From: Aliarcobacter thereius LMG 24486 | GTDB lineage: Bacteria; Campylobacterota; Campylobacteria; Campylobacterales; Arcobacteraceae | Assembly (NCBI RefSeq): GCF_004214815.1 | Contig: NZ_CP035926.1 | Span: 372,001 to 436,000, forward strand | Length of the DNA: 64,000 bases | Reading direction: 5' to 3' | Shown: positions 6,754-40,591 of the stretch, piece by piece | How positions within the stretch are numbered: position 1 is the first letter of the stretch | How the letters are laid out: each line of letters starts with the position of its first letter | Notes under the pieces: model-generated | Seen by the model: only the letters and a program-made list of their open reading frames with translations | What the model was told of the DNA's origin: nothing | Databases searched by the model: none | Translations under genes and position numbers: made by a program

Positions 6754-6830
6754 TGGCGCGGCCAACGAGACTCGAACTCGCGACCTCCTGCGTGACAGGC
6801 AGGCATTCTAACCAACTAAACTATGGCCGC
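6754..6830 (-). tRNA. tRNA-Asp (GTC), copy 1
   Basis: Cloverleaf on the minus strand with acceptor GCGGCCA/TGGCCGC, anticodon GTC in CCTGTCACGC, T-loop GTTCGAGTC and an encoded CCA. It is the last gene of the eight-tRNA array and is identical to the copy at 7132-7208. Confidence 0.96.
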
Positions 6831-6842
6831 ACCAGAAAATGA

Positions 6843-6918
6843 TGGTGGTCGATAAAAGACTCGAACTTTTGACATCTACCTTGTAAGGGTAGCGCTCTAC
6901 CAACTGAGCTAATCGACC
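6843..6918 (-). tRNA. tRNA-Val (TAC), copy 1
   Basis: Cloverleaf with acceptor GGTCGAT/ATCGACC, anticodon TAC in CCCTTACAAGG, and an encoded CCA. It is identical to 7221-7296, and the 12-base spacer to tRNA-Asp is also identical in both array copies. Confidence 0.96.
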
Positions 6919-6948
6919 AAATAGGGAGAAAATATTGTAAATTTATCT

Positions 6949-7023
6949 TGGTGACCCCTAGGGGATTCGAACCCCTGTGGCATGGATGAAAACCATGAAT
7001 CCTAACCGTTAGATGAAGGGGCC
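6949..7023 (-). tRNA. tRNA-Glu (TTC), copy 1
   Basis: Cloverleaf with acceptor GGCCCCT/AGGGGTC (one G-U pair), anticodon TTC in GGTTTTCATCC, and an encoded CCA. The gene matches 7315-7389, but the spacers on both sides differ between copies. Confidence 0.96.
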
Positions 7024-7044
7024 AAGATTAAATAACAATAAAAG

Positions 7045-7120
7045 TGGTGACCTGTGATGGATTCGAACCATCGGCCTCCTCATTAAAAGTGAGATGCTCT
7101 ACCGACTGAGCTAACAAGTC
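7045..7120 (-). tRNA. tRNA-Lys (TTT), copy 1
   Basis: Cloverleaf with anticodon TTT in CACTTTTAATG, T-arm GATGGTTCGAATCCATC and an encoded CCA. It begins the second half of the transcript and matches 7403-7478. Confidence 0.96.
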
Positions 7121-7131
7121 AAAAAATAAAA

Positions 7132-7208
7132 TGGCGCGGCCAACGAGACTCGAACTCGCGACCTCCTGCGTGACAGGCAGGCATTCTAACCAACTAAACT
7201 ATGGCCGC
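7132..7208 (-). tRNA. tRNA-Asp (GTC), copy 2
   Basis: Identical in sequence to the tRNA-Asp at 6754-6830, displaced by 378 bases. It closes the first Lys-Glu-Val-Asp unit in transcription order. Confidence 0.96.
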
Positions 7209-7220
7209 ACCAGAAAATGA

Positions 7221-7296
7221 TGGTGGTCGATAAAAGACTCGAACTTTTGACATCTACCTTGTAAGGGTAGCGCTCTACCAACTGAGCTAATCGACC
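7221..7296 (-). tRNA. tRNA-Val (TAC), copy 2
   Basis: Identical to the tRNA-Val at 6843-6918, again displaced by exactly 378 bases and with the same 12-base spacer to tRNA-Asp. Confidence 0.96.
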
Positions 7297-7314
7297 GTTT
7301 GTATATTTTAGCCT

Positions 7315-7389
7315 TGGTGACCCCTAGGGGATTCGAACCCCTGTGGCATGGATGAAAACCATGAATCCTAACCGTTAGATGAAGGGGCC
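7315..7389 (-). tRNA. tRNA-Glu (TTC), copy 2
   Basis: Same gene as 6949-7023, displaced by 366 bases because the neighbouring spacers differ in length. CCA is encoded. Confidence 0.96.
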
Positions 7390-7402
7390 AAGATATACAA
7401 AA

Positions 7403-7478
7403 TGGTGACCTGTGATGGATTCGAACCATCGGCCTCCTCATTAAAAGTGAGATGCTCTACCGACTGAGCTAACAAGTC
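7403..7478 (-). tRNA. tRNA-Lys (TTT), copy 2
   Basis: First gene of the array in transcription order, about 55 bases downstream of the consensus -10 box at 7533-7538. It matches 7045-7120, and CCA is encoded. Confidence 0.96.
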
Positions 7479-38759: not shown

Positions 38760-38765
38760 AAAATA

Positions 38766-38791
38766 GGTTTTAGAATAAAAATTCTAAAACC
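38766..38791 (+). terminator. terminator after ftsH
   Basis: A perfect 11-bp inverted repeat (GGTTTTAGAAT with ATTCTAAAACC, AAAA loop) seven bases past the ftsH stop and just before the leuA promoter, insulating the two operons. Confidence 0.65.
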
Positions 38792-38812
38792 TCTAAATAA
38801 TAAAATTTATCC

Positions 38813-38841
38813 TTGACAAAAAAGATAAAAATAAATATACT
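38813..38841 (+). promoter_or_regulatory. sigma-70 promoter of the leuL-leuA leader transcript
   Basis: TTGACA (38813-38818) and TATACT (38836-38841) are separated by exactly 17 bases. Transcription should start near 38848-38850, about 22 bases ahead of the leader-peptide ATG. Confidence 0.8.
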
Positions 38842-38870
38842 TTCGGACTTATATAAAAAAGGAGAGTAAT

Positions 38871-38945
38871 ATGAAAATATTTAATATTTCACAAAACAAT
38901 TTCATTCAAAGTGCTAACTCTCTACTCCTCTTAAAACTTCTCTAA
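38871..38945 (+). CDS. leuL: putative leucine leader peptide upstream of leuA
   Basis: A 24-codon reading frame with a strong AAGGAGAG Shine-Dalgarno sequence 5-6 bases before its ATG. The peptide begins MKIFNISQNNFIQ and ends SLLLLKLL: six Leu codons in the last seven, five of them CTA, CTC, CTC, CTT and CTC rather than the TTA that dominates this genome. Slow charging of tRNA-Leu would stall ribosomes there. It lies between a consensus promoter and leuA, the entry enzyme for leucine synthesis, as expected of an attenuator leader peptide. No GC-rich terminator is visible after it; the mechanism may use other pairings (see findings). Independent of the leader peptides of enteric bacteria by sequence. 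Confidence 0.75.
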   Translation: MKIFNISQNNFIQSANSLLLLKLL

Positions 38946-38982
38946 AATTTAATTTTAATTATTTCGTTTCAGCTTTAGTTTT

Positions 38983-39010
38983 TCTTTTTTTATAGAAAAA
39001 AAGATATAAT
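38983..39010 (+). promoter_or_regulatory. A/U hairpin and second -10 box ahead of leuA
   Basis: TCTTTTTTT (38983-38991) and AAAAAAAGA (38996-39004) can form a nine-pair stem with an ATAG loop. It is followed at once by TATAAT (39005-39010), a possible second leuA promoter downstream of the leader. Whether the stem acts in attenuation or simply reflects the T-rich upstream element of that promoter cannot be decided from sequence. Confidence 0.4.
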
Positions 39011-39037
39011 CAATTGTTAATTTAAAAGGTAAATATT

Positions 39038-40591
39038 ATGGATAAAAATAAAATTATTGTATTTGATACAACTTTAAGAGATGGTGAGCAAAGTCCTGGA
39101 TGCTCTATGAATACTGATGAGAAGATAAAAGTAGCATTACAGTTAGAGAAATTAGGTGTTGATGTTATTGAAGCTGGATTCGCAGCTGCAAGTCCAGGTG
39201 ATTTTGATGCAGTTAGTCAAATTGCAAAAATTATAAAAAACTCAACAATCTGTTCATTAAGTAGAGCAATAGATAATGATATAAAACAAGCAGGATTAGC
39301 TGTTTCTCATGCTTCAAAACATAGAATTCATACTTTTATTGCAACGAGTCCAATTCATATGCAATATAAATTAAAAATGACTCCAGATGAAGTTATTAAA
39401 AGAGCTGTTAAAGCTGTACAATATGCTAAAACTTTTGTAGATGATGTTGAATTTTCTTGTGAAGATGCAGGAAGAAGTGAAATACCATTTTTAAAAGAGG
39501 TTATTGATGCGGTTATTGAAGCAGGTGCAAAAACAATAAATTTACCAGATACAGTAGGATATAGATTACCAACAGAATTAGCTTCAATGATAAAAGAGTT
39601 AAGTGCTTATACAGGAGATAGAGCAATAATCTCTGTACATAATCATAATGATTTAGGATTAGCAACAGCAAATACTTTAGCTTCAGTATTAAATGGAGCT
39701 AGACAAATTGAAGTTACAATAAATGGATTAGGTGAAAGAGCTGGAAACTCTGCTTTAGAAGAAGCTGTTATGGCAATAAAAGTTAGAAAAGATATTTTTG
39801 GTGATTTATATACAAATATTAATACTCCTGAATTATATGCTACTTCAAGATTAGTTGCAACAATTACAGGTGTTGAACCACAACAAAATAAAGCGATTGT
39901 TGGTAAAAATGCTTTTGCTCACGAAAGTGGAATACACCAAGATGGTGTTTTAAAACATCAAGAAACATATGAAATTATGAGACCTGAAGATGTTGGTGTT
40001 ATTAAAGATAGCACTTTGATTTTAGGAAAACATAGTGGAAGAGCTGCATTTAAAGATAAAATTGCACAATTAGGTTTTGATAATGTAAGTGAAGAAGAGT
40101 TAAATAATGCATTTGAAAGATTTAAAGTTTTAGCTGATAAGAAAAAAGATATAACAGATGATGATGTAAGAATGTTAATAACTGATGAAGCTTTAAATCA
40201 TGATAAAATTTTTGATTTAGTTGGATTACAAATTAGTGATTGTTCAAATGGTTTACCAATGGCAGCTGTAACAATTAAACACAATAATGAGATTTTAAAA
40301 GATGCAGCTTTAGGTGATGGAACTATGGATGCTATATTTAAAACAATTGATAGATTAACAGGTTACTCAGGACAATTAAAAGATTATAAAGTTGTATCTG
40401 TTAGTGAAGGAAAAGACTCTTTAGCAAAAGTAACAACAAGAGTTAGTTTTGAAGAAAATAGCCAAACATTTGTTGGGCATGGATTAAGTATTGATACAAT
40501 GTTAGCAACTGCAAAAGCATATTTAGGTGCATTAAACTCATATTTATCACAAAAAGATAGACTTACAAAAAATTGTGGTCATCAAATATAG
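39038..40591 (+). CDS. leuA: 2-isopropylmalate synthase
   Basis: A 517-residue enzyme condensing acetyl-CoA and 2-oxoisovalerate, the committed step of leucine synthesis. The catalytic barrel has [16 protein letters not shown], the metal-binding HNHNDLGLA and NGLGERAGN; the C-terminal regulatory domain (about 390-517, with [17 protein letters not shown]) binds leucine for feedback inhibition. AAAAGG stands before the ATG. A putative leucine leader peptide and two candidate promoters precede it, so control at both enzyme and transcript level is likely. leuBCD are not in the window. Confidence 0.97.

What the first reader, a model, noticed from the sequence alone, without database searches (positions are those of the whole stretch)
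38813..39037. A leucine attenuator-like leader peptide ahead of leuA in a Campylobacterota genome
Seen: a TTGACA-N17-TATACT promoter, then a 24-codon frame with a strong Shine-Dalgarno sequence and an ending SLLLLKLL (six Leu in seven codons, mostly non-TTA codons), then leuA. The ribosome binding site GGAGAGT (38861-38867) can pair with ACTCTCT (38917-38923) at the edge of the Leu codons, and an A/U hairpin (38983-39004) and second -10 box lie ahead of leuA. Known: leucine operons of enteric bacteria use such leader peptides with GC-rich terminators. Inferred: here the mechanism may differ, since no GC-rich terminator is visible. Ribosome stalling could instead free or mask pairings, or act on translation of the leader itself.
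Basis: partly seen in the sequence, partly recalled or inferred. Interest (0 to 1): 0.82.

Follow-up and report, generated by a model that had tools for sequence, protein, structure and literature searches.

The report
Leucine-sensing leader peptide before leuA
Ahead of a leucine-making gene in this Aliarcobacter-like bacterium lies a tiny leucine-rich gene, already known in its phylum and probably a leucine sensor; comparing about 135 relatives shows two undescribed features, its ribosome-binding site pairs with its own leucine codons and parts of the tiny protein are strictly conserved.

Summary
A consensus promoter (38813-38841), a 24-codon frame with a strong ribosome-binding site (38871-38945) and a rare-codon Leu run precede leuA. 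The frame recurs, only before leuA, in 30 of 31 same-genus genomes; Leu-run leaders sit before leuA in about 135 of 173 upstream regions of the order. The class is not new: LeuL was reported in C. jejuni and most Epsilonproteobacteria in 2013 (PMC3847290), and its translation was confirmed by profiling in 2025 (PMC11955535). What I add concerns mechanism. (1) The leader's own Shine-Dalgarno pairs with its Leu codons; the pairing covaries between lineages (0 of 20,000 partner swaps as strong), while leuA's Shine-Dalgarno shows no such link. (2) Nearly all leaders lack an intrinsic terminator; many relatives have a C-rich, G-poor stretch instead, which fits Rho. (3) In six families the motif LPKIEIKN just before the Leu codons is nearly invariant while synonymous sites are near saturation (pN/pS 0.037), so the nascent chain itself is selected; the Aliarcobacter type has its own conserved block. 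Most likely this is ribosome-mediated transcription attenuation with Rho-type termination and a self-closing leader. An arrest-peptide role is the most novel reading not excluded.

The parts
38765..38792 (.). Hairpin between ftsH and the leader promoter, terminator-like on the minus strand
   Evidence: 12 pairs, loop 4
38813..38841 (+). P1, promoter of the leader: TTGACA-N17-TATACT
   Evidence: 11 of 12 consensus bases; found with 17-bp spacing in 34 of 35 unique Arcobacteraceae leaders
38861..38867 (+). Leader Shine-Dalgarno GGAGAGT, 5' arm of the covarying helix
38871..38945 (+). leuL leader frame, MKIFNISQNNFIQSANSLLLLKLL (24 codons and stop)
   Evidence: conserved in 30 of 31 same-genus genomes, only upstream of leuA; C. 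jejuni LeuL translation shown by others (PMC11955535)
38901..38921 (+). Conserved peptide block FIQSANS (family consensus FIKSVNS) just before the Leu run
   Evidence: pN/pS 0.118 over MKIF plus FIKSVNS in 32 unique leaders
38917..38923 (+). ACTCTCT, 3' arm of the helix with the leader Shine-Dalgarno; overlaps the Asn-Ser-Leu codons
   Evidence: covariation by partner-swap test; present in minimum-energy and centroid folds
38922..38942 (+). Control codons CTA CTC CTC TTA (AAA) CTT CTC
   Evidence: CTC is 0.7% of Leu codons in the window's long frames
38943..38957 (+). A/U palindrome starting at the leader stop codon; a hairpin in most relatives, too weak to be predicted in the window itself
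   Evidence: mean z -1.85 in the family; three pairs with double-sided changes; window energy 0.0
38984..39010 (+). P2, probable second promoter: T-tract/A-tract dyad followed by GATATAAT
   Evidence: box in 35 of 35 unique leaders; dyad 92% paired but with few informative changes
39026..39029 (+). leuA Shine-Dalgarno AAGG
   Evidence: sequence; no covarying pairing with the leader
39038..40591 (+). leuA, 2-isopropylmalate synthase
   Evidence: NCBIfam NF002086 751 bits and TIGR00973 668 bits, both over cut-off; Pfam LeuA_dimer

Best explanation
This is the Aliarcobacter form of the Campylobacterota leucine leader LeuL. RNA polymerase starting at P1 makes the leader RNA. If leucyl-tRNA is scarce, the ribosome stalls on rare CUN Leu codons at the end of the frame, covers the pyrimidine-rich stretch there, and polymerase reads on into leuA. 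If leucine is plentiful, the ribosome finishes and leaves, the leader's own Shine-Dalgarno pairs with the freed Leu-codon region and shuts off further rounds of leader translation, and the unprotected RNA is terminated just downstream, most likely by Rho since no intrinsic terminator is present. A second promoter P2 next to leuA gives basal, unattenuated expression. Shown here: the conserved frame and its peptide-level selection, rare codons, the covarying SD-to-Leu-codon helix, absence of intrinsic terminators, and the C-over-G bias in many relatives. Shown by others in C. jejuni: translation initiation at LeuL and short RNAs ending just behind its stop codon. Inferred: leucine dependence, Rho, the purpose of the helix, and P2 activity.
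For: Leader with SD and Leu run ahead of leuA in about 135 of 173 upstream regions; in same-genus genomes 30 of 31, all strong matches upstream of leuA, and the exception is a contig that starts 69 bases before leuA. Rare codons: 3 of 6 Leu codons are CTC against 0.7% in the window. SD-to-Leu-codon pairing: own -10.8 to -11.1 against -9.2 to -9.5 kcal/mol with swapped partners, 0 of 20,000 permutations at 52, 29 or 22 clusters; SD with upstream codons, SD with post-stop RNA, and leuA SD with Leu codons show nothing. Intrinsic-terminator-like sites in 0 of 35, 2 of 51 and 4 of 39 leaders. After the leader stop, C 0.197 and G 0.048 in the LPKIEIKN group against 0.157 and 0.177 upstream. Rho is encoded in this genome. 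C. jejuni short leader RNAs and attenuation proposal: PMC3847290; TIS peak for LeuL: PMC11955535.
Against: In the window itself the post-stop stretch has 5 C and 6 G, so rut-likeness is weak there. The leader does not fold better than shuffles. P2 could supply leuA without passing the attenuator. No expression data for this species. About 35 of the 173 upstream regions lack a recognisable leader.
Confidence: 0.6

Rival explanations
1. LeuL is an arrest peptide: the nascent chain (LPKIEIKN in many families, a MKIF...FIKSVNS block here) interacts with the exit tunnel and helps to stall the ribosome at the Leu codons, or senses leucine or a pathway intermediate directly. Codon hunger is then only part of the signal.
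For: 54 of 54 leaders keep L-P-K-I-E and N; pN/pS 0.037 over the 8 codons while synonymous sites differ at 0.875, so the constraint is on amino acids. The motif ends right before the Leu codons, where it would fill the upper exit tunnel of a stalled ribosome. It occurs in at least six families, only as the leuA leader. The Aliarcobacter type also shows peptide-level constraint (0.118).
Against: No toeprint or structure. The motif itself is absent in Aliarcobacter and several other families, whose leaders still keep Leu codons and the SD helix. The conserved peptide could instead act after release.
Confidence: 0.3
2. Classical attenuator with an intrinsic terminator made of A/U-rich stems.
For: A/U hairpin at the leader stop codon in Arcobacteraceae with double-sided changes, and a T-tract further down; C. 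jejuni leader RNAs end shortly after the stop codon (PMC3847290).
Against: The hairpin is not followed by a U run; in the window it is not predicted at all; other families have no hairpin there (mean z 0.17 and 0.28); consensus scan finds nearly none.
Confidence: 0.12
3. Translational attenuation of the kind proposed for the actinobacterial LEU element: Leu codons sequester the leuA Shine-Dalgarno until a stalled ribosome frees it.
For: Geometry allows it, and the LEU element is a published precedent (PMC1262725).
Against: Pairing between leuA SD and Leu codons is weak and not better than swapped partners (own -4.67, swapped -4.86).
Confidence: 0.05
4. leuA is driven mainly by P2, and the P1 leader RNA or peptide acts in trans or has another role.
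For: GATATAAT box and A/T tracts directly before leuA are invariant in the family.
Against: Leaders in other families sit 45-60 nt from leuA; single copy only upstream of leuA; Leu run, rare codons and SD helix fit a cis role.
Confidence: 0.12

Closest known systems
LeuL of Campylobacter jejuni and other Epsilonproteobacteria (Porcelli et al. 2013, PMC3847290; TIS profiling PMC11955535)
   Same: Short frame with SD ahead of leuA, 20-35 aa, rare Leu codons near its end, no GC-rich terminator noted; reported for most genomes of the group with leucine genes.
   Different: The text of those papers does not describe the SD-to-Leu-codon helix, the LPKIEIKN motif or Rho; supplementary figures and tables could not be opened. 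C. jejuni also has TrpL and MetL.
leuL attenuator of enteric bacteria (general knowledge)
   Same: Leader peptide with tandem rare Leu codons ahead of leuA.
   Different: No GC-rich terminator and antiterminator; the helix involves the leader's own ribosome-binding site; parts of the peptide other than Leu are conserved.
LEU element of Actinobacteria (PMC1262725)
   Same: leuA leader with a Leu run that pairs with a Shine-Dalgarno.
   Different: There the partner is the leuA Shine-Dalgarno within a pseudoknot; here it is the leader's own, and pairing to leuA's is not supported.
Rho-dependent leaders such as tnaC, and arrest peptides such as TnaC and SpeFL (general knowledge)
   Same: Leader frame without intrinsic terminator, C-rich G-poor RNA, conserved nascent chain near the end of the frame.
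   Different: Neither Rho dependence nor stalling has been shown here; the sequences are unrelated.

Membership tests
Campylobacterota LeuL leader peptides | Short frame with ribosome-binding site directly upstream of leuA | tested here: met
Campylobacterota LeuL leader peptides | Several rare Leu codons near the C-terminal end | tested here: met
   CTA CTC CTC TTA CTT CTC; CTC 0.7%, CTA 11% and CTG 1.0% of Leu codons in the window
Campylobacterota LeuL leader peptides | Short RNA ending just behind the leader stop codon | not testable with these tools
   reported for C. jejuni only (PMC3847290)
Enteric-type intrinsic attenuator (leuL, trpL) | Tandem control codons for the pathway's amino acid | tested here: met
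Enteric-type intrinsic attenuator (leuL, trpL) | Intrinsic terminator hairpin with U run, and competing antiterminator | tested here: not met
Actinobacterial LEU element | Leu codon run pairs with the leuA Shine-Dalgarno | tested here: not met
   no Rfam match
Rho-dependent leader attenuation | Rho encoded in the genome | tested here: met
Rho-dependent leader attenuation | C-rich, G-poor RNA exposed when the leader is not occupied | tested here: inconclusive
   strong in the LPKIEIKN group, weak after the stop codon in the window
Rho-dependent leader attenuation | Loss of termination when Rho is inhibited | not testable with these tools
   needs experiment
Ribosome arrest peptides | Conserved amino acids shortly before the stall site, with free synonymous change | tested here: met
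   LPKIEIKN pN/pS 0.037; Aliarcobacter type 0.118
Ribosome arrest peptides | Stalling that depends on the nascent chain | not testable with these tools
   needs toeprinting

The most novel reading that the evidence does not exclude
LeuL is a hybrid sensor: a phylum-wide nascent-chain arrest peptide whose conserved motif (LPKIEIKN or the FIKSVNS block) primes the ribosome to stall at rare Leu codons, coupled to a leader whose ribosome-binding site is sealed by those same codons, so each leader RNA is read essentially once before Rho decides its fate.
Probability: 0.25. Interest if true: 0.78.

Novelty: new variant of a known kind. Interest (0 to 1): 0.52.

Why it matters
Leader-peptide attenuation in Campylobacterota has been proposed since 2013 but without a mechanism, since the usual terminator is missing. 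The conserved self-sealing of the leader ribosome-binding site by its own control codons and the strictly conserved peptide motif give concrete, testable parts. If the peptide acts in the exit tunnel, a textbook amino-acid attenuator and an arrest peptide would be one system.

Tried and rejected
Chance frame: rejected. Known RNA family: no Rfam match in or near the leader above threshold; no Pfam or NCBIfam match to the peptides. Translational control through the leuA Shine-Dalgarno: not supported. Intrinsic terminator: scanned in 125 leaders, nearly none. A/U dyad 38984-39003 as an RNA hairpin: pairs hardly vary, so not shown. Synonymous-codon shuffles were a weak test for single leaders (only 12% individually below 0.05) because any Leu-rich pyrimidine stretch pairs somewhat with a purine-rich SD; the partner-swap test was used instead. 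A pattern scan of public genomes mostly hit unrelated bacteria by chance but named relatives (Aliarcobacter vitoriensis, A. cryaerophilus, Campylobacter concisus). LPKIEIKN is not found in any paper of the text library.

Full report
Observation. leuA is 2-isopropylmalate synthase; upstream lies ftsH, separated from P1 by a terminator-like hairpin. The leader frame is the only one in the window with an SD and a Leu-rich end, and half of its Leu codons are CTC, which makes up 13 of 1879 Leu codons in the window's long frames.

Conservation. A search of relatives with LeuA and retrieval of upstream DNA gave 173 leuA upstream regions with a recognisable start; about 135 carry a short frame with SD and Leu run. 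In the genus, 30 of 31 genomes have one strong match to the leader profile, always directly before leuA; the exception has a contig that begins 69 bases before leuA. Relatives named by contig title include Aliarcobacter vitoriensis, A. cryaerophilus and Campylobacter concisus, so the window is from an Aliarcobacter or a close neighbour (inference).

Prior knowledge. Porcelli et al. 2013 (PMC3847290) reported LeuL ahead of leuABCD in C. [quoted passage not shown] A 2025 study saw a strong translation-initiation peak for LeuL (PMC11955535). The finding is therefore a member of a described class.

Selection on the peptide. In 54 leaders from at least six families (f4, f9, f10, f18, f20, f22) the motif LPKIEIKN stands just before the Leu codons: L, P, K, I, E and N are invariant. 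Over its 8 codons the mean pairwise synonymous difference is 0.875 and the nonsynonymous 0.032 (ratio 0.037). The Aliarcobacter type has MKIF and FIKSVNS blocks with ratio 0.118. Counts are pairwise and not tree-corrected, but saturation of synonymous sites rules out recent descent as the cause. Classical attenuation needs only the control codons, so this points to a role for the nascent chain. The motif is found only as leuA leader, and no paper in the text library prints it.

SD-to-Leu-codon helix. Examples: GGAGAGU/ACUCUCU here, AGGAGCA/UGCUCCU (L045), AAGGAGU/ACUCCUU (L047), AGGAGAGU/ACUCUCCU (L048), AGGAGUGUAC/GUACACUUCU (L275), AGGAGGAUAGA/UCUAUCCUCCU (L235). Swapping arms between lineages weakens the pairing: own -10.75, -11.07 and -10.76 against -9.47, -9.34 and -9.17 kcal/mol at 52, 29 and 22 clusters, with 0 of 20,000 permutations as strong. 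Controls with other segments, leuA SD included, give nothing. Arms are 38-81 nt apart, so a stalled or translating ribosome would keep the helix open and a ribosome-free leader would close it (inference).

Termination. Intrinsic-terminator-like sites occur in 0 of 35 (Arcobacteraceae), 2 of 51 and 4 of 39 leaders. The RNA between leader stop and leuA is C-rich and G-poor in the LPKIEIKN group (0.197 to 0.048; upstream 0.157 to 0.177) and less so in Arcobacteraceae (0.085 to 0.044); in the window it is 5 C and 6 G. Rho is encoded. Rho is thus the best candidate, not shown. RNAs trimmed back to the SD-Leu helix would end just behind the stop codon, as seen in C. jejuni (inference).

Other elements. 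Arcobacteraceae carry an A/U hairpin beginning at the leader stop codon (mean z -1.85) with double-sided changes at three pairs; in the window it is marginal. The T-tract/A-tract dyad and GATATAAT before leuA are nearly invariant and look like a second promoter of the A/T-tract type.

Verdict. Real, conserved and mostly known as a class; the helix and the peptide-level constraint are the parts that I could not find described in the texts available, and they make the missing mechanism testable.

Noticed in passing
window 6754-7478: Tandem duplication of a four-tRNA cluster, Asp-Val-Glu-Lys twice on the minus strand.
   Followed up: no
window 38943-38957 and relatives in alignment A1: A/U hairpin whose 5' arm begins with the leader stop codon, with compensatory changes in Arcobacteraceae; role unknown.
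   Followed up: partly
window 38984-39010: Nearly invariant T-tract/A-tract dyad plus GATATAAT directly before leuA, a likely second promoter downstream of the attenuator.
   Followed up: partly
LPKIEIKN-type leaders, second Leu codon of the run: This codon is only CTG (40) or CTA (14) in 54 leaders, never CTC or CTT, which SD pairing does not explain.
   Followed up: no
L055, L065 and the window: ftsH directly precedes leuA also in another family and in a family member without the leader, so the gene order may be older than the leader form seen here.
   Followed up: no
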